DNA from: Natronomonas marina
GTDB taxonomy: Archaea; Halobacteriota; Halobacteria; Halobacteriales; Haloarculaceae
NCBI RefSeq assembly: GCF_024298905.1
Contig: NZ_CP101154.1
Span: forward strand, 2,852,001-2,916,000
Length of the DNA stretch: 64,000 nt
Direction of reading: 5' to 3'
In this document: piece by piece, positions 32,907 to 53,728 of the stretch
How positions within the stretch are numbered: the stretch's first letter is position 1
How the letters are laid out: every line of letters begins with the position of its first letter
Notes under the pieces: generated by a model
Told to the model about the DNA's origin: nothing
The model's database searches: none
What the model saw: the letters and a program-made list of their open reading frames with translations, nothing else
Made by a program: the position numbers and the translations under genes

Positions 32907-33869
32907 TCAGGGAACCACGTCGGAGATGGCCCGCGAGATGGTCTCCTCGTCCGGGAGCGTGTACTCCTCCTCCGGCGGGCTGTACGATATCGGGACGTCG
33001 GCCCTCGTGACCCGCTTTACGGGTGCGTCGAGGCTCCAGAACGCCTCGTTGCTGATCCGGCTCGCTATCTCGGCCGCGGCGCCACACGTCCGGTAGCCAC
33101 CGTCGACGACGACGGCCCGGCCGGTCTTCTCGACGCTCTCGAAGATCGTCTGCTCGTCGAGGGGCAGGAGGGTCCGGGGATCGACGACCTCGACGCTCAC
33201 CCCGTCGAGGTCGTCGGCGACCGACCGGGCCATGCGGACGGTCTCGCCGACGGCGACGACCGTGACGTCGTCGCCCTCGCGCTTGACGTCCGCCTCGCCG
33301 AGGGGGATCTCGGGGGTCTCCTCGGGGACCTCCTCGCGGGTGCTCTGGAGTTTCGCCGGCCAGTAGACGACCACCGGGTCGTCCTCGGCGACGGCGCTGT
33401 GCAACAGCCCCTTCACGTCGGTCGGCGTCGTCGGAACGACGACCTTCACCCCCAGGTGCATGAGGACGGGGTAGGTGTAGTCCGAGTGCTGGGCCGAGGC
33501 ACTGCCGGGGGCACCCGCCGACGGGATCGTGATGGTGATCGGTATCGAGACCTGTCCGTCGGTCATGTGTCGGAGCCGCTGGGCGTTGTTGGCGAGCTGG
33601 TCCATCGCCAGGTAGCTCATCGTGTTTATCTGGTGTTCGACGATGGGTCGCTTGCCGTCCATGGCGGCGCCGACGGCCAGCCCGTGGAAACCTTGCTCGG
33701 AGATGGGGACGTCGACGACCCGGTCCTCGCCGTACTCGTCGACGAGGTCGTGGGTCGTTCCCATCAGCGCCAGACGCACGTCCTCGCCCATGACGAACGC
33801 CTCTGGGAACTCCGCGAGCACCTCGTGATACGATTCGACGATCGCGCCGACGTAGCTGGTATCGCTCAT
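32907..33869 (-). CDS. 2-oxoacid dehydrogenase E1 beta subunit
   Basis: A 320-residue E1 beta. GEDVRLALMGTTHDLVDEYGEDRVVDVPISEQGFHGLAVGAAMDG contains the ThDP-activating Glu (E in DVPISEQGFHG region), followed by YLAMDQLANNAQRLRHMTDG and TYPVLMHLGVKVVVPTTPTDVKGLL (transketolase-like pyrimidine-binding and C-terminal domains). The dehydrogenase may act on pyruvate, branched-chain 2-oxoacids or acetoin; the sequence alone does not separate these. Two bases separate it from the E1 alpha stop, so they form one unit. Confidence 0.88.
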   Translation of the reverse strand: MSDTSYVGAIVESYHEVLAEFPEAFVMGEDVRLALMGTTHDLVDEYGEDRVVDVPISEQGFHGLAVGAAMDGKRPIVEHQINTMSYLAMDQLANNAQRLRHMTDGQVSIPITITIPSAGAPGSASAQHSDYTYPVLMHLGVKVVVPTTPTDVKGLLHSAVAEDDPVVVYWPAKLQSTREEVPEETPEIPLGEADVKREGDDVTVVAVGETVRMARSVADDLDGVSVEVVDPRTLLPLDEQTIFESVEKTGRAVVVDGGYRTCGAAAEIASRISNEAFWSLDAPVKRVTRADVPISYSPPEEEYTLPDEETISRAISDVVP

Positions 33870-33871
33870 CG

Positions 33872-34915
33872 TTATCTGTATTTCGGGGCCGGAAAGGCCG
33901 GGTACTCCTGGTCGGCGTAGGCGTTCTCGGGCGCTCGATCCCCGCTCGGAAGGTCGCTCTCGGTTGCGAGGTCGACGGCGCTCGATACCTCCTCGTCGAT
34001 CTCGTCGTCGATCTCGCGCAGCGTCTCCGCGTCGACGCGACCGGATTCGACGAGGGCCTCGCCGAACGTCTCTATCGGGTCGCGGTTCTCCTTCCAGTCG
34101 CGTATCTCCTCGTCGGACCGATAGCTCCGGTCGCTCAGGATAGCCTCCTCGCCGGAGAAGTGGCCCTTGTACCGGTAGGTCTCGCACTCGACGAACTGCG
34201 GGCCCTCGCCCGCTCTCGCGTCGTCGACGGCCTCGGAGATCGTCTCGTGAACCGTCAGGACGTTCTGGCCGGTGATGGTCCGGCTCTCGATCCCGTAGGC
34301 CTCGCCCCGGCTGGCCAGGCTGTCGCCGGCGGCGGCGTACTCGACGTCGGTGCTGACGGCGTACTTGTTGTTCTCGCAGACGAAGATCACGGGCAGATCC
34401 CAGATGGCGGCCATGTTCATCGTCTCGTGGACGACGCCCTGGTTTATCGCGCCCTCGCCGAAGAAGGAGACCCCGACGCGGTCGTCCCCGTCGATCCGGC
34501 CGCTGAGCATGCCACCGGCGACGTGTGGGACGCTGGCACCGACGATCGCGTTGCACCCGAATATCCCCAAAGAGAAGTCGACCATGTGCATCGAGCCGCC
34601 GCGTCCCCGGTTCAACCCCGCCTCCCTGGCCGTCAGCTCCGCCATCATCCCATCGAGGTCGGCGCCCTTCGCCAGGACGTGCCCGTGTCCGCGGTGGGTG
34701 CTGCCGATGATGTCCTCGTCGTCGAGTGCGGTACACGTCCCGACGGCGATGGCCTCCTGTCCGATGTAGGGGTGTATCGGCCCCGGAATCTCGCCCGCCC
34801 GGACCAGCTCGCCGGCGGCGATCTCGAACTCGCGGATCTGCTTCATCTGTCGGTACATCTCCACCAGCAGATCCTCGTCTCGATCACCGATTTGCGATAC
34901 TAACTGCTTTTCCAT
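33872..34915 (-). CDS. 2-oxoacid dehydrogenase E1 alpha subunit
   Basis: A 347-residue E1 alpha. The ThDP/Mg motif is GEGAINQG (153-160) with ENN (181-183); the usual Asp in GDG is Glu here. Other features: SMHMVDFSLGIFGCNAIVGASVPHVAGG, and the substrate loop ECETYRYKGHFSGEEAILSDRSYRSDEEIRD. A strong TATA box (34942-34951) is 31 nt upstream of the ATG, predicting a leaderless transcript for E1 alpha-E1 beta. The long antisense ORF extending to 36502 is an artefact covering E2. No E3 gene is nearby. Confidence 0.9.
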   Translation of the reverse strand: MEKQLVSQIGDRDEDLLVEMYRQMKQIREFEIAAGELVRAGEIPGPIHPYIGQEAIAVGTCTALDDEDIIGSTHRGHGHVLAKGADLDGMMAELTAREAGLNRGRGGSMHMVDFSLGIFGCNAIVGASVPHVAGGMLSGRIDGDDRVGVSFFGEGAINQGVVHETMNMAAIWDLPVIFVCENNKYAVSTDVEYAAAGDSLASRGEAYGIESRTITGQNVLTVHETISEAVDDARAGEGPQFVECETYRYKGHFSGEEAILSDRSYRSDEEIRDWKENRDPIETFGEALVESGRVDAETLREIDDEIDEEVSSAVDLATESDLPSGDRAPENAYADQEYPAFPAPKYR

Positions 34916-35077: not shown

Positions 35078-36772
35078 ATGGGAGACATCATTCGGATGCC
35101 CCGGCTTGGCATGCAGATGCAGCAGGGGACGCTGATCGAGTGGCACGTCTCGACGGGGGACGCCGTCGACGCCGACGACCTCCTCGCCGAGATCGAATCC
35201 GAAAAGTCGGTCGGCGAAATCCGCGCCCAGTCGGCCGGCGTCGTCCGCGTGCGCTACCTCCGCGAGGGCGAAGCCGCCGAACCCGGCGCGGCGCTGGCGA
35301 TCGTCGCACCGGCCGGAGAGGACATCGACGAACTCCGGGAGTCGGTCGACGCAGACCCGTCCGCGGCGGGCGCCGAGGACGCTTCCGGGGATGAGCCGAG
35401 TGGTGAGACCGGGGACGCATCCGACGTGAGGGCGACGCCACGGGCCAAGAAACGGGCCCGTGAACTCGGCGTGGACCTGGCCGCGGTCGAGGGTAGCGGT
35501 CCCGACGGCGCCGTGACCGCCGACGACATCGACGCCGCCACGGCCGCAAGCGAGGAAGCCGGCGTCGAATCCGGCGAGGAAGGTGGAGACGAGGCCCCGA
35601 CAGGAACGAGCGGGCCGGCGGTCCGGGAACGGCGGCAACTGGTCGGCGTCCGGCGCACGATAGCCGAACGCCTCCAGCGAAGCCACCGGGAGGCCCCACA
35701 CGTAACCGAACACCGGGACGTCGACGTGGAGCCGATGCTGGCGGCGCTGGAGGCGTGCCGCGAGGAGTACGACCCGGACCTCTCGCTCGTCGACCTGCTC
35801 GTCGCCGCGGTCGCCGAGACGCTGACGGAGCACCCGGAGTTCAACGCCACGCTGGAGGACGACACGCACGTCCTCTACGACGACGTGAACGTCTGCGTCG
35901 CCGTCGATACCGACGCCGGACTGGTCGCGCCCGTGATACGCGAGGTGGGGAGCAAGTCGCTGACGGAACTGGCCGAGTCGCGCAGGGACGTCACCGAGTC
36001 CGCGCAGAACGGGGAGTACGCACCAGAGGACCTCACCGGCGGGACGTTCACCGTCTCCAACCTCGGCGTCCTGGGCGTCGACTCGTTTACCCCGATCATC
36101 AACCCGCCGCAGGTCGCCATACTCGGCGTCGGCCGACCCCACGGCGAGGTCGTCGGCGACGGCGCCGACTCTCGGACCCGCAGACACGTCACGTTCTCGC
36201 TCTCGTTCGATCACCGTGCGGTCGACGGCGCCGACGCGGCGCGGTTCCTCGAGACGCTCGCCAACCTCGTGGGCGACCCCGCCTCGGTGCTGCCCGAGGG
36301 CGTCGAGGTCGACGCTCTCGGTGACGACACCGGCGCCGAACCCACCGCGGCCGACGGCGAGGAGGCGCTCCCGCACCGAACCGCAACGGCCCGCGTCGAG
36401 GACGGACTCTCCGGGACGGCGCGGGTGGCGAACGGCTCGTGGCGGTTCGACGAACCGGAGACGGTCGGCGGGACCGGAACGGCCCCGACGCCGGTCGACC
36501 ACTTCCTCGGGTCGCTCGCGTCCTGTCTGGCCGTCACATGTCGGCTCCAGGCCGACAAGTACGACGAGGAGCTAACGTCGACGGCCGTCGAGGTCGAGGC
36601 GGGCCCCGAGACGGGACGCATCGAGGACCTCGCGGTCACGATAACCGTGCGAACGGACGCCGACGACGACACGGTCGAGCGCGTGGTCGAGGCCAGCGAA
36701 CGAGCGTGCTACGTGTCGGACCTGCTGCGGGACGACCTCGCGGTGGACGTCACCTGGACGCGGGAGGCGTAG
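35078..36772 (+). CDS. 2-oxoacid dehydrogenase E2 fused to a C-terminal OsmC-like domain
   Basis: A 564-residue fusion. N-terminal lipoyl domain (about 1-78) with lipoyl lysine 43 in ESEKS; peripheral E3/E1-binding domain about 118-152 (ATPRAKKRARELGVD); acyltransferase core to about 400 with catalytic FDHRAVDG (His379, Asp383). After an acidic linker, residues about 432-564 match an OsmC/Ohr-type domain: THxxARVxDG start, GTGTAPTPVDHFLGSLASC (Cys483, also Cys488) and ERACYVSDLLRDD (Cys544). OsmC proteins reduce organic hydroperoxides with a Cys pair that can be recycled by lipoyl groups. So the fusion may be a self-reducing peroxidase. Diverges from E1 alpha. Confidence 0.85.
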   Translation: MGDIIRMPRLGMQMQQGTLIEWHVSTGDAVDADDLLAEIESEKSVGEIRAQSAGVVRVRYLREGEAAEPGAALAIVAPAGEDIDELRESVDADPSAAGAEDASGDEPSGETGDASDVRATPRAKKRARELGVDLAAVEGSGPDGAVTADDIDAATAASEEAGVESGEEGGDEAPTGTSGPAVRERRQLVGVRRTIAERLQRSHREAPHVTEHRDVDVEPMLAALEACREEYDPDLSLVDLLVAAVAETLTEHPEFNATLEDDTHVLYDDVNVCVAVDTDAGLVAPVIREVGSKSLTELAESRRDVTESAQNGEYAPEDLTGGTFTVSNLGVLGVDSFTPIINPPQVAILGVGRPHGEVVGDGADSRTRRHVTFSLSFDHRAVDGADAARFLETLANLVGDPASVLPEGVEVDALGDDTGAEPTAADGEEALPHRTATARVEDGLSGTARVANGSWRFDEPETVGGTGTAPTPVDHFLGSLASCLAVTCRLQADKYDEELTSTAVEVEAGPETGRIEDLAVTITVRTDADDDTVERVVEASERACYVSDLLRDDLAVDVTWTREA

Positions 36773-45604: not shown

Positions 45605-47683
45605 ATGCTACGGCTTGGCATAGACATCGGTGGTACGTTCACCGACTTCACGCTGATAGACCCCTCGACCGACGAGGCCACGATCGACAAGGAGCCGACG
45701 ACGGAAGCCCAACCGGAACGGGGTGCGCTGCGGGGAGCGAAACGCATCCTCTCGGAGAACGACGCCCGGTTCGAGGACCTCGAGTCCGTGCTTCACGGAA
45801 CGACGCTCGTGTCGAACACCGTCATCGAACGGACGGGGGCGAAAACGGGGCTGCTCGCTACCGCCGGCACCCGGGATTCGCTGGAGCTTCGTACGGGGCT
45901 CCGGTACGACATGTCCGACTGGAAGATCACGTATCCGGAGCCGCTGGTCCCCCGGCACCGTCGCCTCGAGGTGGACGAACGGATCGACGCCGCCGGGAAC
46001 GTCGTCGAGTCGATCGACCGGGAGGCGGTGTACGAACGGGTCTCGACCCTCGTGGAGGACCACGGCGTCGACGCCATCGCCGTCTCGTTTCTCCACTCGT
46101 ACCTCTCGGGGGAGCACGAACGTGCCGTCGCGGAGGTCGTCGAGGAGCACTACCCCGACGTACACGTTTCGCTGTCCTCGGAGGTGGCTCCCGTCGTCGG
46201 CGAGTACCTCCGGACCTCGACGACGGTGCTGAACGCCTACGTCGCACCGGTCGTCGAAAACTACGTCGAGACGCTGGAGAGCGACCTCCGGACCGAAGGG
46301 TTCGACGGGAACCTCTACATGATGACCTCGACGGGCGGGGTCGTGGGGACGGCGGTCGCAACCGCCGAACCCGTCAGGCTGATCGAGTCCGGGCCGGCGG
46401 CGGGCGTCCTCGCGAGCAAGTTCTACGCCCGGGAGTACGGCTGGGACGACGTCTTCTCGTTCGACATGGGCGGGACGACCGCGAAGGGATCCGCCGTACA
46501 GGACGACGAGGTGCTGATAAACTACCAGGACGACGTCGCCCGCGAATACCGCTTCGAGGAGGGCAGCGGCTACCACGTCGTCTCCCCGCTGATCGACCTC
46601 ACGGAGATCGGCGCCGGCGGCGGGAGCATCGCCAGCGTCACCGAACACGGCACCATCGAGGTCGGTCCCGAGAGCGCGGGCGCCGAGCCCGGCCCGGTCT
46701 GTTACGACCAGGGCGGAACCGAACCGACGGTTACGGACGCACTGCTGTTGCTCGGCTATCTCAACCCCGAGAACTTCCTGGGCGGTCGGATCGACCTCGC
46801 CGAGGGAAAGGCCGAAGAGGTCTTTTCGGATCGACTCGCCGATCCGCTCGACATCTCCGTGCCCGAAGCGGCGTGGCACGTCTACGACCTGGTGAGCACG
46901 AACATGGCGTCGGCCTTCCGCCGGTACACCTCCAGCAGGGGGATCGACATCAGCGGTCTCCGGATGGTGGCGACCGGGGGGGCAGGGCCGACCCACGCCC
47001 ACCGGATCGCCGACGCGATCGGTATCGACGAGATCGTCTGTCCGTACGGTGCCGGCGTCGGGTCGTCGATCGGGCTGACCGAAGCGCCGAAGCTCTACGA
47101 GGCGAGTTCGAGTCGGCACGGCGTGGTGGCCGCGCTGGACGCCGAAACGATCCGAGCGGAGTTCCGCGCGCTACGCGAGGAGGCCGAGGCGGCGCTGGCG
47201 AAGACCAACGCCGACATCGACGACACCGAGACCTCGATCAGTATGGATATGCGACACGTCCAGCAGGGCTACGAGATAAAGGTCCCGTTCCCGGAGCACG
47301 ACCTCGAGGAAGTAACGCCCGAGATCGCCAGCGAGCGGTTCGCCGAGGTGTACCGCGAGCAGTTCAACCGCGACGTGCTCGATCACCCGATCGAGGTGCG
47401 GAACTACCACCTCCAGCTGTCGGAACCGACCGAGGCCGGCCTCCCGAAGCTGACGGGGGTGGGGGGATCGACCCCCTCCCCCAGTGACCGCGAGATGTAC
47501 TTCCAGCGAACCGGGCGACTCGAGGCGCCCGTCCACGCGTGGAACGACCTCGATGCCGGCGAGCGGATCGACGGACCGGTGGTGGTGGAGGCGACCGAGA
47601 CGACCGCCGTCGTCGGCCCGGATTCGACGCTCGAAGTGAAACCCGGCAAGGACCTCCTCATCGATACAGGTGATTCCCGATGA
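45605..47683 (+). CDS. hyuA: HyuA: hydantoinase/oxoprolinase family ATPase subunit
   Basis: A 692-residue HyuA. Phosphate loop LRLGIDIGGTFTDFTLI (residues 2-18), HGTTLVSNTVIER, and the second site SFDMGGTTAKGS are intact, with IGAGGGSIASVTEHGTIEVGPESAGAEPGPVCYD. Its stop overlaps the hyuB start (ATGA at 47680-47683). The substrate could be a cyclic amide or a ketone; the sequence does not decide. First gene of a two-gene operon. Confidence 0.9.
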   Translation: MLRLGIDIGGTFTDFTLIDPSTDEATIDKEPTTEAQPERGALRGAKRILSENDARFEDLESVLHGTTLVSNTVIERTGAKTGLLATAGTRDSLELRTGLRYDMSDWKITYPEPLVPRHRRLEVDERIDAAGNVVESIDREAVYERVSTLVEDHGVDAIAVSFLHSYLSGEHERAVAEVVEEHYPDVHVSLSSEVAPVVGEYLRTSTTVLNAYVAPVVENYVETLESDLRTEGFDGNLYMMTSTGGVVGTAVATAEPVRLIESGPAAGVLASKFYAREYGWDDVFSFDMGGTTAKGSAVQDDEVLINYQDDVAREYRFEEGSGYHVVSPLIDLTEIGAGGGSIASVTEHGTIEVGPESAGAEPGPVCYDQGGTEPTVTDALLLLGYLNPENFLGGRIDLAEGKAEEVFSDRLADPLDISVPEAAWHVYDLVSTNMASAFRRYTSSRGIDISGLRMVATGGAGPTHAHRIADAIGIDEIVCPYGAGVGSSIGLTEAPKLYEASSSRHGVVAALDAETIRAEFRALREEAEAALAKTNADIDDTETSISMDMRHVQQGYEIKVPFPEHDLEEVTPEIASERFAEVYREQFNRDVLDHPIEVRNYHLQLSEPTEAGLPKLTGVGGSTPSPSDREMYFQRTGRLEAPVHAWNDLDAGERIDGPVVVEATETTAVVGPDSTLEVKPGKDLLIDTGDSR

Positions 47684-49359
47684 ACGACCGACCGACCGAC
47701 GATCGACCCGGCGTGAGCAGCCTCGAGAAGGAAATAATCGGAACGCGTCTGCAGACGGCCGCCGAGGAGATATGGGACGCGACCACGCGACTCGCCTTCT
47801 CGATAGCGATGCGGGACATGAAGGACGCCTCGACGAGCGTGATGACGCCGGACGGGACGGCCATCGGCTGGTCACAGCGGAACGTGCCCGCGCTCTCGGG
47901 GAACGTCTCGCGGACGACGCGGATCATCCTCGAAGAGCACATCCCGCCCGAGGACATCGACCCCGGCGACGTGATCGTCACCAACGATCCGTGGATCGGG
48001 AGCGGGCACCTGCCGGACATGAGCGTGATCACGCCCATCTTCCACGACGGCGAACTCGCCGGCTTCGCGGGGACGACCGGACACCTCCAGGACATCGGCG
48101 GGAGCCCCGGCGGCTGGTCGACCGATTCGACGCAGTTCTACTCCGAGGGCGTGCTGGTCCCGCCGACCAAGCTCTACGAGCGCGGCGAGCGCAACGACGC
48201 GGTCGAGACCATGATTCGCGGGAACGTTCGGATTCCGGACACGGTCATGGGGGACATCGAGGCGATGCGCTCGGGCAACGCCGTCGGTGCCGAGCGGATC
48301 CGCGAGACCGTCGAGGAGGCCAGCGTCGACGCCTTCGTCGAGGTGACCGAAGAACACCTCCAGCGATCCGAGGAACGCCTGCGGAACAGGATCCGCGAAC
48401 TCGACGACGGGACGGAATCCGGCGAGATATCGTTCTCACTTGCGGGACACGACCTGATCTTCGAGGTCGACCTCACGGTCGACGGGAGCGATATCGTCGT
48501 CGATACGACCGGCTCCTCCGAGCAGGTCGAAGCCGGCATCAACATCCCCTTCACGAACACGCGGTCCGTCACCGAGTACGTCGTCACCAGCATGCTGATC
48601 GGCTCCGACGTGGCCAAGACAGAGGGCGTGTTCGAACCGATCGAGATCGTCGCCCCCGAGGGATCGATCCTCAACTGCGAACGCCCGTTCCCGACGCTGT
48701 CCCGACACGTCACGTTCGGGCGCTACGAGGCGTTGCTGATGAAGTTGCTGGGACGGTTCGTCCCGGACCAGGCCATCAGCGAGTTCGGCGGCGTCCACGT
48801 CAACACGTTCACGGGCGTCGACGAGAACGGACAGGAGTTCGTCTCGCTGTTCCCGCTTGCGTCCGACATCCCGCCGAGCAAGGGGAAGGACGGTGAACCG
48901 GGCGTCTTCTTCCCGTACGGCGGCCGGTGGGTCCCGATCGAGGTCTTCGAGCAGTACTGCCCGGTGCGGGTCGAACGGAACACGTTCGCGCCGGACACGG
49001 AGGGTGCCGGCGAGTACCGCTCGGCCCCTGCGGTGGAGTTTTCGGTCCACAACCCCTCCGACGTGACGGTCGTCATCGTCTCCGTCGCCGAGAACGCCGA
49101 TCACAACCCGGCCGGGTTCGAGGGTGGCCTCGAGGGGAAAACCGACACCGTGTCCTCCTCCGTCGAGGGGAGAGACGTCCCAGTCGACGGTCGGATCGAA
49201 CTCGAGCCCGGCGAGACGCTCACGTTCAGCCCCGCCTCCTCGGGGGGATACGGGGACCCCGAGAACCGCGACGAGGACCTGATCGAGCGGGACGTTCGCT
49301 ACGGCTACATCACCGAAGAGCGGGCCCGGGAGGTGTACGGACACGAAACCGACGAGTAG
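47680..49359 (+). CDS. hyuB: HyuB: hydantoinase B/oxoprolinase subunit
   Basis: A 559-residue HyuB. Family features include FSIAMRDMKDASTSVMTPDGTAIG, GDVIVTNDPWIGSGHLPDMSVITPIF, and the C-terminal SSGGYGDPENRDEDLIERDVRYGYITEERAREVYG. No zinc ribbon is seen at the C-terminus, unlike the following gene. It is convergent with the next HyuB, 25 bp apart. Confidence 0.9.
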   Translation: MNDRPTDDRPGVSSLEKEIIGTRLQTAAEEIWDATTRLAFSIAMRDMKDASTSVMTPDGTAIGWSQRNVPALSGNVSRTTRIILEEHIPPEDIDPGDVIVTNDPWIGSGHLPDMSVITPIFHDGELAGFAGTTGHLQDIGGSPGGWSTDSTQFYSEGVLVPPTKLYERGERNDAVETMIRGNVRIPDTVMGDIEAMRSGNAVGAERIRETVEEASVDAFVEVTEEHLQRSEERLRNRIRELDDGTESGEISFSLAGHDLIFEVDLTVDGSDIVVDTTGSSEQVEAGINIPFTNTRSVTEYVVTSMLIGSDVAKTEGVFEPIEIVAPEGSILNCERPFPTLSRHVTFGRYEALLMKLLGRFVPDQAISEFGGVHVNTFTGVDENGQEFVSLFPLASDIPPSKGKDGEPGVFFPYGGRWVPIEVFEQYCPVRVERNTFAPDTEGAGEYRSAPAVEFSVHNPSDVTVVIVSVAENADHNPAGFEGGLEGKTDTVSSSVEGRDVPVDGRIELEPGETLTFSPASSGGYGDPENRDEDLIERDVRYGYITEERAREVYGHETDE

Positions 49360-49384: not shown

Positions 49385-51604
49385 CTACTCGACGACGACG
49401 TCGACCTGAAGCATCACGCCACACCCCGGACAGGCGTGTTCCCGGAGCCGGACGTCCGGTTCCTCCTCCCGTTCCTGAACGAACAGCGACAGCTCTTCGT
49501 ACCGCTCCTCGATCGGCGAGTCGTTCGTGGCAGTGTACGCGAGCCACTCCTCGTCGTCGGGCCCGCCGTAGGGCGCGAACACCTCCTCGCACTCCGAACA
49601 CTGGAGGTACGCGTCCTCGACGACGTCCACGTAGCGGTGGAACTCTGTCCGGGCGGAGACCGACGCGGGTTCGTCCGCCAGCGTCCGGTCGGCCCCCCAC
49701 GAGGTTCGTTCGTCGCGCATCGCCCGGCGCCGTTCGCGGGACTGCTCCTCGTCGACCCGGCCGTCCGAGACGACGACCCCGTAGGTGTTCTCGGCCTGCG
49801 CTTCGGAGACGTACCCGTCACGGAGGTCGGAGGCGACCCGATCGAGGTCCCGCTCGAGCGGATCACCGAGCCCGCTGCCGCCGCCGAGCCGGTTGGCGAA
49901 CACCGTGTCGGCGTCGATCGGGATACCGACGTCCTTGGCGGGAAGCTGCTCGTGTTCGCCGCCGAGGTCCGCGAGGTCGTCGGGGAGTTCGTTCCGGTCG
50001 AGAGCCGCCCGCACGTTCGATCCCTGCACGGTTTCGAAGACTGTCGTTCCCGGCGGATAGCCGCCCATGAGACCCTCGGTTGGTACCTGTGTAGTCGCCG
50101 ACGTGACGGTCTCTTTGCCCTGTTCGGACCCGTGCAGCAGCCACGCGTACTCGATGCCCTGGCCGCCCCGGTACTCGCCGGGACCGCTCGAGTTGCGGTT
50201 GAGCCGCCGCCACAGGTAGAGAACCGGATGGTCGGCCTCGTTCGTCTCGATGTTCGGGATGCCCGCGTTGATCTGCGTGCTCGATGCGCCGCCGGAGTCC
50301 TGTCCATCGTGGACCGCAGTCGCACCGCCACCGGCACCACCCCCGTGCATGTCTAGGAAGACATCCGGTTCGCCGAACTGGTTCATCCCGAAATAAATCG
50401 CCGCGGGGAACGTCTCGTGGAACGGCGCGCAGGCGTGCTCGCGGACGAACTCGCTGTCCGACTGCCGCATCACGCGAGCGATCAGGTTGTGGACCGCTGC
50501 GAGCACGGCGAGCCCCGTCTCCATGTGCCCGGACGACGTCGGCGCCGGCTCTACCGGGTTCGTGATCGTTCCCTCGGGGGCCTCGATCTCGAACGGCTCG
50601 AACATCCCCTCGGTGACGGGGACCTCCGGGGCGAGCTGGTTCGCGATGGGCGTGAACGCGGTTCCCGTGGTGGCGCCGATCCCCGCGTTGATGAACCCGG
50701 GGGCCTGCTCGTCCGAGCCCGAAAAGTCGATCGTCAGCTCGTCGCCGTCGACGGTCAACGTCGCATCGACCTCGTACAGTTCGTTCTCGTGACCGTCGTG
50801 CTCGACGTACTCGGTGTTGCGGTAGGTGCCGTCGGGGAGTTCCTCGATCCGCTTGCGCAGCGCCTGCTCGCTCAGTCGCTTGTTCACATCCAGGTAGTGT
50901 TCGAACGTCTCGAGCCCGAACTCCGCGATGGTGTCCGTCAGTCGCTCCTCACACCGGTTGTTGGCCGCTATCAGCGCGCGGATGTCGTTGAACACCCGGA
51001 TCGGGATTCGAACGTTGGTCGTAATCGTCCGCTGGATGTCCTCGCGAATCTCGCCGTCCTCGACGATCTTGACGCCTGGCCACCGGATGGCCTCGGCGTA
51101 CGTCTCTTCAGCCTGCGGAGCGAAACCCCCCGGAGCGACGCCGCCGATGTCCAGGAGGTGTGACTCGGCCCAGCACCAGGCGACGAGTTCGTCCTCGTGG
51201 AAGATCGGTTTGACGATGCCGGTGTCCGGCTGGTGGGCGACACCCGTCCGGAACGGGTCGTTGCAGATGTACTGATCGCCAGGCTGAACGTCGTCCTGGT
51301 TCTCTATGATGTACTCGACCGCTAGCCGTGCGGGAGCGGCGTGCTCCATCAGGTACCCGGAGTAGCCGATGATCTCGCCGTCCGCGTCGGCCACGAACGT
51401 CGAGAAGTCCATCGACTCGGTGATGACCGGGTTCCCCGACGTCTGTATCATCACGGTCCCCATCTCGTTGGCGATGTTGTACAGCCGACTGCGGAGGATC
51501 TCGGCGAGAACCGGATCGTACTCCTCGTCTATGGATATCGATTCGCCCGCGGTGCCGCCGTGACTCGTGCTCCGGGTCGTACCGGATCGTGGTGTCTTGC
51601 TCAT
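49385..51604 (-). CDS. hyuB: HyuB fused to an acetone-carboxylase-gamma-like zinc ribbon
   Basis: A 739-residue protein. Residues about 1-640 are HyuB (DGDQYICNDPFRTGVAHQPDTG-like core, GGAGGGATAVHDGQDSGGASSTQ), then a C-terminal segment 666-739 with Cys669, Cys672, Cys725 and Cys728. LREHACPGCGVMLQVDVVVE resembles the acetone carboxylase gamma end (LREYYCPSCGTQLEVE). Acetone and acetophenone carboxylases are HyuA/HyuB-type with a separate gamma subunit; here it is fused. A strong Shine-Dalgarno (GGAGGT, 51612-51617) precedes the ATG, and the HyuA stop lies 3 nt away. Confidence 0.88.
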   Translation of the reverse strand: MSKTPRSGTTRSTSHGGTAGESISIDEEYDPVLAEILRSRLYNIANEMGTVMIQTSGNPVITESMDFSTFVADADGEIIGYSGYLMEHAAPARLAVEYIIENQDDVQPGDQYICNDPFRTGVAHQPDTGIVKPIFHEDELVAWCWAESHLLDIGGVAPGGFAPQAEETYAEAIRWPGVKIVEDGEIREDIQRTITTNVRIPIRVFNDIRALIAANNRCEERLTDTIAEFGLETFEHYLDVNKRLSEQALRKRIEELPDGTYRNTEYVEHDGHENELYEVDATLTVDGDELTIDFSGSDEQAPGFINAGIGATTGTAFTPIANQLAPEVPVTEGMFEPFEIEAPEGTITNPVEPAPTSSGHMETGLAVLAAVHNLIARVMRQSDSEFVREHACAPFHETFPAAIYFGMNQFGEPDVFLDMHGGGAGGGATAVHDGQDSGGASSTQINAGIPNIETNEADHPVLYLWRRLNRNSSGPGEYRGGQGIEYAWLLHGSEQGKETVTSATTQVPTEGLMGGYPPGTTVFETVQGSNVRAALDRNELPDDLADLGGEHEQLPAKDVGIPIDADTVFANRLGGGSGLGDPLERDLDRVASDLRDGYVSEAQAENTYGVVVSDGRVDEEQSRERRRAMRDERTSWGADRTLADEPASVSARTEFHRYVDVVEDAYLQCSECEEVFAPYGGPDDEEWLAYTATNDSPIEERYEELSLFVQEREEEPDVRLREHACPGCGVMLQVDVVVE

Positions 51605-51607
51605 TGG

Positions 51608-53728
51608 TCATACCTCCCCGAGACGGGTGACCGCGTGGCGGTCCGTCTCGGCCTCCGTCCGCGAGAGCGCGTAGTTGTAGTACCTGTCCACCGACATCTC
51701 GAACCCGTCCGGCACGAACACCGTCGTCGTGTCCTCCTCGATGATCGCGGGCCCGACGACCGACGATCCAGGGGGGACCGCACCGGGATCGTACACGTCG
51801 ACCTCCCGCCGATCACGCTCGAAGGGGAGGTACACCTCGCGCGAACGGGAGGGAGGTGGGCTCTCTCCGCCGGTCAGTTCCTGTTCTTTCAGCGACCGCT
51901 TGGAGACGGTGCTGGTGCCGGTGACCCGCACCCCGCGCAACACTATCGGCGACTCCACCCACGCCGTTCCCGGGCCGTACTCCTCCTCGTAGAGGTCCGG
52001 GAACCGCGACTGGATGTCCTCCATGTCCGCCTCGGTCAGGTCGCCGTCGGGGAGCGTCACCGGATAGTCGAACAGCTGTCCCTTGAACTTGAACCGTCCC
52101 TGCCGTTCGATCTCTATCTCGTCCTCCTCGAACCCGGCCGCCGTGAGCCGGTCGCGGATCCGGGTCTCGGTTTCCTCGAGCGCCTCGTTGACCCGGTCGA
52201 CCGGCTCGCCCGGGTTCCAGAACAGCGACTCGCTGTAGGTACGCATGTCGTCGGCCTGGAGGAGCCCGTAGGCGGAAAAGATGGACGCGGTGTTGGGGAT
52301 GACGATCTCGTCGATCCCCAGCGTCGAGCAGATGTCCGCCGCGAACATCGGCAGCGCACCGCCGTAGGAGAACATCGTGAACCCGGTCGGGTCACGGCCC
52401 TCCTGGACGGTGACGCTCCGGACGGCGTTGCTCATGGAGTTGATCGCTATACTGTAGATCGCGGCAGCGGCGTCCTCGACGCTCCGACCGAGCGGTTCGG
52501 CCACGTTCTCCCGGAGCGCGCTCTCGGCGGCCTCGACGTCCAGCTGGCGGCGGCCACCGAGGAACGCGTTCGGGCGGATCAACCCGAGCACCAGCGCCGC
52601 ATCGGTCAGCGTCGGGTCCGTTCCCCCCTGGCCGTAGCAGGCCGGGCCGGGATCGGCGCCGACGCTCATCGGACCGATCTGCGGCGCGCCTCGCTCGTCG
52701 ACCCAGGCGATAGAGCCGCCCCCGGCGCCGATGGTGTGGGTGTCGACTTTCATTATCCCGGTCTGTATCTCGCGAACGACCTCCATCTGCTCGGTGATCG
52801 GCAACTCGTCGTCCTCGATGATCGAACACTCGAAGCTCGTTCCGCCCATGTCGGCTGCGATGACGTTCTCGACGTCCAACTGCCGCCCGAGTTCGCGCGA
52901 TCCGATCACTCCTCCGACCGGGCCCGAGTCCGTGAGCTGGATCGGGGTCTCCTTGGCCTCCGCCGGCGTCGTACTCCCGCCGGCGGCCTGCATGAGCGAG
53001 ATGACCGACGTGTCGAGCCCCATCTCCCCGAGTTCCCGTTCCATCTCGTCGACGTATTCGGCGACGTCCGGCGCCGTGTACGCGTTGAGCGCCGTGGCCA
53101 CCATCCGTTCGTACTCCTGGACCTTCGGGTAGACGTCCGCCGACGCGGTCACGTACAGGTCCGGATAGAGGTCCTCGATCAGTTCCTTCGTTCGGACCTC
53201 GTGGTCCGGGTTCTGGAAGCTCCAGAGGTAACATGTGGCGATCGCCTCAACCCCCTCGTTCTCGACGAGATCGCGCGCCGCTTCTTCGACCGCCTCCTCG
53301 TCGAGTTCGACCACGACGTTCCCCTCGTAGTCGACCCGTTCCGGAATCCCCCTGATGCAGTTCCGGGAGACGATGTCCGGAACGTTCACCTGTTCGATCG
53401 GGTCACGTTCCGGACCCCGCGGGGAGCGTGCGATCCTGAGTGTGTCGCGGAACCCCGCCGTGGTCAACAGCCCGACGTTCGCCCCGTCGAGTTCGACGAT
53501 GTCGTTGGTGACGATCGTGGTGCCGTTGACGAAGCGCTCGGTGTCGGCCAGCAGTTCGCCCGGCGGTATCCCGACCTCGTCGGCGACGCCGAGAACGGCG
53601 TTTCTCACCCCCTCGACCAGGTTCTCGGGCACCGTGTCCGTTTTGTGCTGCCACTCTACTCCGTTTTCGTCGAGTACGATGATGTCGGTGAACGTCCCAC
53701 CGATGTCGCAACCGATTCTGTATGGCAT
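51608..53728 (-). CDS. hyuA: HyuA: hydantoinase/oxoprolinase family ATPase subunit (carboxylase type)
   Basis: A 706-residue HyuA. Phosphate loop YRIGCDIGGTFTDIIVL (residues 3-19), NGTTIVTNDIVELDGA, and the second site AADMGGTSFECSIIEDDE are intact, with IGAGGGSIAWVDERGAPQIGPMSVGADPGPACYG. The pairing with the gamma-fused HyuB suggests an ATP-dependent carboxylase of a ketone or a similar substrate. A minus-strand ttttaata at 53758-53765 lies about 34 nt upstream. The HyuB-gamma gene follows after 3 nt. Confidence 0.9.
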   Translation of the reverse strand: MPYRIGCDIGGTFTDIIVLDENGVEWQHKTDTVPENLVEGVRNAVLGVADEVGIPPGELLADTERFVNGTTIVTNDIVELDGANVGLLTTAGFRDTLRIARSPRGPERDPIEQVNVPDIVSRNCIRGIPERVDYEGNVVVELDEEAVEEAARDLVENEGVEAIATCYLWSFQNPDHEVRTKELIEDLYPDLYVTASADVYPKVQEYERMVATALNAYTAPDVAEYVDEMERELGEMGLDTSVISLMQAAGGSTTPAEAKETPIQLTDSGPVGGVIGSRELGRQLDVENVIAADMGGTSFECSIIEDDELPITEQMEVVREIQTGIMKVDTHTIGAGGGSIAWVDERGAPQIGPMSVGADPGPACYGQGGTDPTLTDAALVLGLIRPNAFLGGRRQLDVEAAESALRENVAEPLGRSVEDAAAAIYSIAINSMSNAVRSVTVQEGRDPTGFTMFSYGGALPMFAADICSTLGIDEIVIPNTASIFSAYGLLQADDMRTYSESLFWNPGEPVDRVNEALEETETRIRDRLTAAGFEEDEIEIERQGRFKFKGQLFDYPVTLPDGDLTEADMEDIQSRFPDLYEEEYGPGTAWVESPIVLRGVRVTGTSTVSKRSLKEQELTGGESPPPSRSREVYLPFERDRREVDVYDPGAVPPGSSVVGPAIIEEDTTTVFVPDGFEMSVDRYYNYALSRTEAETDRHAVTRLGEV
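51612..51617 (-). promoter_or_regulatory. Shine-Dalgarno of HyuB-gamma gene
   Basis: GGAGGT on the minus strand, 7 nt before ATG at 51604, inside the end of hyuA. Supports translation of the distal gene from a leadered message. Confidence 0.6.

What the first reader, a model, noticed from the sequence alone, without database searches (positions are those of the whole stretch)
35078..36772. E2 acyltransferase fused to an OsmC-type peroxidase domain
The lipoyl, subunit-binding and acyltransferase regions (lipoyl Lys43; His379/Asp383) are followed by a full OsmC-like domain (about 432-564) with Cys483/488 and Cys544 in the expected places. Ohr/OsmC peroxidases are known to be reduced by lipoyl groups of E2 proteins, so fusing them would place the oxidant-destroying thiols next to their electron donor. 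I do not know of this fusion as a described system. It could protect the dehydrogenase or use 2-oxoacid oxidation to fuel hydroperoxide removal.
Basis: partly seen in the sequence, partly recalled or inferred. Interest (0 to 1): 0.8.

Follow-up and report, generated by a model that had tools for sequence, protein, structure and literature searches.

The report
Dehydrogenase E2 fused to OsmC domain
In many salt-loving archaea the central subunit of a 2-oxoacid (or acetoin) dehydrogenase carries, as part of the same protein, a thiol redox domain of a peroxide-removing family; this offers a ready-made test of whether its lipoyl arm powers oxidant removal, although the redox domain often outlives the dehydrogenase.

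Summary
ORF 35078-36772 encodes 564 aa with lipoyl, E3-binding, 2-oxoacid acyltransferase and OsmC domains, all far above Pfam cut-offs. It is not an artefact. Of 293 Halobacteriales genomes, 37 carry this OsmC clade: 27 as full E2::OsmC fusions, 10 in reduced form. A bacterial MAG has an E1a-E1b-E2::OsmC operon. Most haloarchaeal fusions sit in an acetoin-dehydrogenase-like cluster, E1a-E1b-AcoX-like-E2::OsmC.

Every OsmC domain keeps both redox cysteines (Cys483, Cys544; 60/60). Cys488 is incidental (1/25). The Arg that activates the peroxidatic Cys in Ohr is absent and its Glu is Asp, so peroxidase activity is plausible but unproven.

New here: OsmC and the dehydrogenase come apart. At least four times, probably five or six, E1 and the E2 core were lost and the lipoyl lysine disappeared, yet OsmC survived under purifying selection. 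OsmC therefore has a function that does not need its own lipoyl group, although other lipoyl proteins remain in those genomes.

Best reading: a thiol redox module, probably a lipoyl-reducible hydroperoxidase, on an orphan dehydrogenase. I found no published description of this fusion.

The parts
35078..36772 (+). E2::OsmC fusion gene, 564 aa
35078..35314 (+). Lipoyl domain (aa 1-79); lipoyl Lys43 codon 35204-35206
   Evidence: Pfam Biotin_lipoyl 1.1e-12; K43 invariant in 26 full-length fusions
35426..35530 (+). E3/peripheral subunit-binding domain (aa 117-151)
   Evidence: Pfam E3_binding 2.6e-13
35627..36289 (+). 2-oxoacid dehydrogenase acyltransferase core (aa 184-404), FDHRAVDG with His379/Asp383
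   Evidence: Pfam 4e-70; D378-H379-R380 invariant, D383 nearly invariant
36290..36370 (+). Flexible linker between E2 core and OsmC (aa 405-431)
   Evidence: pLDDT below 50 at 417-431
36371..36769 (+). OsmC domain (aa 432-564); Cys483 codon 36524-36526, Cys544 codon 36707-36709
   Evidence: Pfam OsmC 2e-15; both Cys invariant; AF2 pLDDT 95 with OsmC-fold PDB matches
33872..34915 (-). E1 alpha (TPP-dependent dehydrogenase), divergent from E2::OsmC across about 160 bp
   Evidence: Pfam E1_dh 5.7e-79, TIGR03182-like but below cut-off
32907..33869 (-). E1 beta
   Evidence: Pfam Transket_pyr and Transketolase_C; PRK09212-like below cut-off

Best explanation
The protein is the lipoyl-bearing E2 core of an orphan 2-oxoacid/acetoin-type dehydrogenase complex with a Cys-pair OsmC redox domain attached to its C-terminus by a flexible linker. 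Most likely mechanism: Cys483 is oxidised by a substrate, probably an organic hydroperoxide; it forms a disulfide with Cys544; the disulfide is reduced by a dihydrolipoyl group. That group is on the E2's own swinging arm or a neighbour's in the complex, itself reduced by E1 plus substrate or by E3 plus NADH. Fusion raises local concentration and ties expression of the redox module to a lipoyl carrier, but the module can also work from other lipoyl proteins (GcvH, another E2) when separated. Shown: architecture, conservation of Lys, His and the Cys pair, fold, linkage to E1, recurrence, survival of OsmC under purifying selection. Inferred: the peroxide substrate, lipoyl as reductant, which lipoyl group.
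For: Pfam OsmC hit and fold. Cys pair kept in 60/60 proteins, aligned to the two Cys of Ohr structures. All 26 full fusions aligned keep the lipoyl Lys, the E2 His and both Cys. E1a/E1b lie beside the fusion in 24 of the sampled loci with a full fusion, besides the window, and in a bacterium as well. Lpd/SucB is the best reductant of Ohr and is reported for OsmC (PMC4486171). PDB entries describe Ohr interacting with dihydrolipoamide and match this fold (6ebd, 6ebg). Genomes with reduced forms still encode another E2 and/or GcvH. OsmC dN/dS in reduced pairs is about 0.18-0.43.
Against: The position of Ohr Arg19 is Leu/Met in most sequences (Arg in 3/25, not in the window) and Glu51 is Asp in 24/25. 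The domain scores below every curated Ohr/OsmC subfamily cut-off and Foldseek ranks 1ml8 (YhfA) first; YhfA is the subfamily excepted from peroxidase activity (PMC4069020). OsmC persists where the lipoyl Lys is lost in cis, so cis-lipoyl coupling is not essential. No activity data exist for any member.
Confidence: 0.5

Rival explanations
1. The OsmC domain is a Cys-pair redox or thiol module that is not a hydroperoxidase, for example a dithiol-disulfide exchange domain between lipoyl groups and another acceptor (low-molecular-weight thiol, persulfide, protein disulfide), acting as an alternative outlet for dihydrolipoyl electrons.
For: Ohr's catalytic Arg missing and Glu replaced, with the clade's own near-invariant motif ER-x-C-[HY]-V around the second Cys; structural closeness to YhfA and Ta0195; both Cys strictly kept, so redox chemistry is still implied.
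Against: No direct evidence for any other substrate; Ohr and OsmC proteins that have been tested are peroxidases (PMC4069020).
Confidence: 0.27
2. The covalent link has little mechanistic meaning: an OsmC gene next to an E2 gene was fused by chance and tolerated, and OsmC does an independent stress job; the lipoyl connection is coincidental.
For: OsmC and E2 dissociate repeatedly: reduced forms keep only OsmC, other lineages of the same E2 family keep only E2, Haloterrigena has OsmC as a separate gene.
Against: The fusion is old, and intact in 27 of the 37 genomes that have the domain, across several families; OsmC-E2 is the very pair with known electron transfer; a related fusion exists in a bacterium.
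Confidence: 0.18
3. The OsmC domain is a redox sensor or regulator of the complex: its disulfide state controls E2 assembly or lipoyl access rather than detoxifying peroxide.
For: Tethering on a flexible linker to the E2 core; Cys pair conserved.
Against: OsmC survives alone after loss of the complex in several lineages, which a regulator of that complex should not.
Confidence: 0.05

Closest known systems
Acetoin dehydrogenase cluster (AcoA, AcoB, AcoC, AcoX) and haloarchaeal orphan OADHCs such as H. volcanii oadhAB3 (HVO_0669/0668)
   Same: E1a-E1b-E2 with an AcoX-like (NAD-kinase-like) gene in most fusion loci; haloarchaeal oadhAB3 E1s are 54%/47% identical to B. subtilis acetoin dehydrogenase subunits with no substrate identified (PMC8305020).
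   Different: E2 has a C-terminal OsmC domain; the window's own locus lacks AcoX and VOC genes and its E1 genes are divergent from E2; no E3 gene in the cluster (the genome's Lpd lies elsewhere). I did not place HVO_0668/0669 in a tree.
Ohr (organic hydroperoxide resistance protein)
   Same: Fold, two-Cys arrangement; Ohr is reduced by lipoylated E2/Lpd (PMC4486171)
   Different: Catalytic Arg absent and Glu to Asp here; E2-fused; only 22.8 bits against the Ohr subfamily cut-off of 88.85
OsmC / YhfA / Ta0195-type OsmC-fold proteins
   Same: Nearest profiles and folds
   Different: Those are stand-alone proteins; the domain is below all curated subfamily cut-offs and has a clade-specific ERxC[HY]V motif
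Alpha/beta hydrolase-OsmC fusions (e.g. L147, 418 aa; probably PDB 9wo1, 400 aa)
   Same: OsmC used as a C-terminal module on a metabolic enzyme
   Different: Partner is a hydrolase (my reading of the L147 translation), no lipoyl domain; its OsmC matches only weakly
Trichomonas hydrogenosomal OsmC with the incomplete glycine decarboxylase complex (title cited in PMC10332631)
   Same: OsmC working with a lipoyl-based complex in peroxide removal (title only; paper not read)
   Different: Separate proteins (from memory)

Membership tests
2-oxoacid dehydrogenase E2 (dihydrolipoyl acyltransferase) | Lipoyl domain with modifiable Lys, E3-binding domain, catalytic domain with DHRxxDG | tested here: met
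   K43, E3_binding, His379/Asp383 present and conserved
2-oxoacid dehydrogenase E2 (dihydrolipoyl acyltransferase) | Partner E1 genes linked | tested here: met
   E1a 33872-34915 and E1b 32907-33869
2-oxoacid dehydrogenase E2 (dihydrolipoyl acyltransferase) | Lys43 actually lipoylated; substrate of the complex | not testable with these tools
   needs mass spectrometry and enzyme assays; NCBIfam equivalogs all below cut-off
Pfam OsmC (PF02566) superfamily | Curated profile score and OsmC fold | tested here: met
   57.4 bits against 27.5; AF2/Foldseek
Ohr peroxidase subfamily | Peroxidatic and resolving Cys | tested here: met
   Cys483, Cys544 align with the two Cys of Ohr structures; 60/60 keep both
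Ohr peroxidase subfamily | Catalytic Arg (Arg19 of XfOhr) | tested here: not met
   aligned position is Leu444 in the window; Arg in only 3 of 25 (role of Arg from PMC5962072)
Ohr peroxidase subfamily | Catalytic Glu (Glu51 of XfOhr) | tested here: not met
   Asp474 here; Asp in 24/25, a conservative change
Ohr peroxidase subfamily | Score above subfamily cut-off (TIGR03561) | tested here: not met
   22.8 bits against 88.85
Lipoyl-dependent peroxidase (functional class) | Hydroperoxide reduction with a lipoylated protein as donor | not testable with these tools
   biochemistry needed
Acetoin dehydrogenase-type cluster | AcoX-like gene with E1a/E1b/E2 | tested here: inconclusive
   Present in most haloarchaeal fusion loci; no match in the window's own genome

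The most novel reading that the evidence does not exclude
A self-contained lipoyl-powered peroxidase machine: substrate oxidation by E1 reduces the swinging lipoyl arm, which delivers electrons directly to the tethered OsmC disulfide, so hydroperoxide replaces E3/NAD+ as electron acceptor of an orphan dehydrogenase; this could help explain why no substrate has been identified for acetoin-type E1s of haloarchaea.
Probability: 0.15. Interest if true: 0.85.

Novelty: new variant of a known kind. Interest (0 to 1): 0.6.

Why it matters
Ohr/OsmC proteins take electrons from lipoylated E2 proteins in vitro, but the physiological coupling is hard to isolate because the same E2s run central metabolism. 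A natural E2::OsmC fusion in haloarchaea, some of which are genetically accessible, makes it directly testable by single-residue mutants (lipoyl Lys, peroxidatic Cys). It also bears on an open question, the function of haloarchaeal 2-oxoacid dehydrogenase complexes, several of which have no identified substrate (PMC8305020). The repeated survival of the OsmC domain after loss of the dehydrogenase shows that it is a selected function and warns against assuming that the two parts work only together.

Tried and rejected
Assembly or frame artefact: rejected, same junction in dozens of genomes. Cys488 as an active-site residue: rejected (1/25). A dedicated minimal lipoyl-OsmC protein: the short proteins looked like a lipoyl carrier fused straight to OsmC, but all have lost the lipoyl Lys, so they are pseudo-lipoyl remnants. 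Plasmid origin: one weak plasmid match (Halobacterium noricense, no annotated feature). Wide bacterial spread: only one bacterial fusion found; 247 genomes of its phylum gave no second. Long open frames with OsmC hits outside the fusion clade were checked; they are overlapping-frame extensions or hydrolase-OsmC fusions, with no E2 match. AcoX as marker of the fusion: rejected; 53 genomes have AcoX-like, about 24 of them with E2::OsmC, others with unfused canonical or dead E2. AhpD-like activity for the neighbouring CMD gene: its sequence has no CxxC.

Full report
OBSERVATION. The ORF at 35078-36772 is open and reads 564 aa. Pfam gives four domains in order: lipoyl, E3-binding, 2-oxoacid acyltransferase and OsmC, the last at 57.4 bits against a cut-off of 27.5. 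In NCBIfam the best OsmC-part matches (OsmC-related selenoprotein family, Ohr) stay below their cut-offs. AlphaFold2 on 26 aligned fusions predicts four confident domains with low-confidence linkers at 96-115, 161-177 and 417-431. OsmC alone folds at pLDDT 94.9 and Foldseek returns E. coli crp-region protein 1ml8 (YhfA; identification from memory), Ta0195, TM0919 OsmC and many Ohr structures, including Ohr with dihydrolipoamide.

GENE CONTEXT. E1 alpha (33872-34915, -) and E1 beta (32907-33869, -) are divergent from E2::OsmC across about 160 bp. The rest of the window is a catabolic island: branched-chain-type ABC transporters, F420/LLM oxidoreductase, CMD-family protein, acyl-CoA dehydrogenases, CaiB-type transferases, enoyl-CoA hydratases (for those scanned; the other names are my reading of the translations). 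The genome has one other E2, in a classical E1a-E1b-E2 cluster, an Lpd elsewhere, GcvH, and two further OsmC-family proteins.

DISTRIBUTION. Searching 293 Halobacteriales genomes with the OsmC domain and reading 40 neighbourhoods, I count 37 genomes with this OsmC clade: 27 full E2::OsmC fusions and 10 reduced forms. None of the 7 other genomes of the window's genus in that sample has it, and the closest relative is Halorubrum sp. 48-1-W (54-56% in the OsmC domain), so horizontal acquisition is likely. A genome-contig scan adds named Natronococcus, Natronorubrum, Natrinema, Halobiforma, Halogranum, Halomarina and others, and one bacterial MAG (L096) with SDR - E1a - E1b - E2::OsmC - LLM oxidoreductase. 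Beyond Halobacteria no other archaeal fusion was seen in the phylum sample (long frames checked), and no second bacterial one in 247 genomes of the L096 phylum.

CLUSTER TYPE. In most haloarchaeal loci the order is E1a-E1b-AcoX-like(-VOC) facing E2::OsmC, often beside korAB. The AcoX-like protein has NAD-kinase-like and DAGK domains; calling it AcoX-like and calling the neighbours korAB is my reading. Of 53 genomes with it, about 24 have E2::OsmC. Twelve of the others were fetched: four have an unfused E2 with DHR, seven have an E2 that keeps the lipoyl Lys but has lost the catalytic His (YDTRA, YDPRV and similar), and in one (L160) only E1a was recognised. In a quick E2 tree the unfused canonical and the dead E2s each form one clade nested among fused ones, with L096 outside. 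This suggests that fusion is ancestral and OsmC was lost at least twice; support is SH-aLRT only and L096 is a long branch, so this is a lead.

CATALYTIC RESIDUES. Lys43, His379, Cys483 and Cys544 are invariant in the full-length alignment and Asp383 nearly so. All 60 OsmC domains examined keep both Cys (the set includes some duplicates of the same genome). Cys488 is found only in the window among 25 sequences. Profile alignment puts Cys483/Cys544 on the Ohr pair and Asp474 on the Ohr Glu, but Leu444 on the Ohr Arg. [quoted passage not shown] The clade has a near-invariant ER-x-C-[HY]-V around the second Cys and a near-invariant Arg434, either of which might substitute (inference).

DISSOCIATION. 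Ten reduced proteins were found in the 293 genomes and a few more in named contigs. Pseudo-lipoyl-OsmC proteins of 200-274 aa (L038, L043, L044, L047, L060, L065, L066, L084, L093) lack the E2 core and the lipoyl Lys and have no E1 or AcoX match in the stretches held (L065 lies at a contig end). L056 lacks a usable lipoyl domain but keeps core and OsmC. L062 has an intact fusion with only broken AcoX pieces and no E1. Haloterrigena-type genomes have a 134-aa OsmC gene beside an E1/AcoX cluster whose E2 is dead. In the OsmC tree the short forms need five changes, four forced by starred branches. OsmC dN/dS in reduced pairs is 0.18-0.43 by Nei-Gojobori, while dN of the lipoyl remnant is two to three times that of OsmC in two of three short-short pairs; in full fusions the two are similar. 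High GC and saturation make these rough. So OsmC is selected after the dehydrogenase is gone. Possible trans lipoyl donors (another E2 and/or GcvH) remain in all those genomes tested.

MECHANISM. Known biochemistry: Ohr of C. glutamicum is reduced best by Lpd/SucB, less well by thioredoxin, and not by the mycoredoxin system (PMC4486171). The simplest model is a Cys-pair hydroperoxidase tethered to a lipoyl carrier. The evidence for a cis electron path is circumstantial (right pair of domains, flexible linker, all full fusions keep Lys). The evidence against an obligate cis path is strong. Loss of the lipoyl Lys tracks loss of E1, which fits the lipoyl group serving E1/E2 first. Peroxidase activity itself is uncertain because of the missing Arg and the closeness to YhfA, the subfamily excepted from peroxidase activity (PMC4069020).

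NOVELTY. Searches of the open-access library found no description of an E2::OsmC fusion; subscription papers, InterPro and UniProt architecture tables could not be checked, and sequence databases may already list the architecture without comment. I rate it a new variant of a known kind.

Noticed in passing
L153:9345-10703, L154:6554-7912, L155:9302-10645, L156:6101-7420, L158:9250-10593, L159:6496-7956, L161:9532-10845; L039:12910-14436: A haloarchaeal clade of E2-like proteins in E1a-E1b-AcoX clusters keeps the lipoyl Lys (ESEKS) but has lost the acyltransferase His (DHR replaced by DTR/DPR/DSR/DAR): a dehydrogenase cluster with a catalytically dead E2.
   Followed up: partly
L096:2147-6372: Bacterial MAG operon SDR - E1a - small ORF - E1b - E2::OsmC - LLM oxidoreductase; the same genome has a stand-alone OsmC (L102) 34% identical to the fused one.
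   Followed up: partly
L034:4305-18000: Around the Halorubrum sp. 48-1-W E2::OsmC operon lie nine tandem or near-tandem paralogs of an SDR; the one scanned matches the mycofactocin-coupled SDR model.
   Followed up: no
window:36836-37615 (-): Two-domain carboxymuconolactone decarboxylase/AhpD-family protein beside E2::OsmC; AhpD is another lipoyl-linked antioxidant family (from memory) but this copy has no CxxC.
   Followed up: partly
L062:3875-4647: AcoX-like gene broken into fragments in a genome whose E2::OsmC is intact but which has no E1 nearby: a snapshot of decay.
   Followed up: partly
window:19914-23635, 45605-49359 and 49385-53728: Three gene pairs that look like hydantoinase/oxoprolinase A and B in one 64 kb catabolic island (judged from translated N-termini only).
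   Followed up: no
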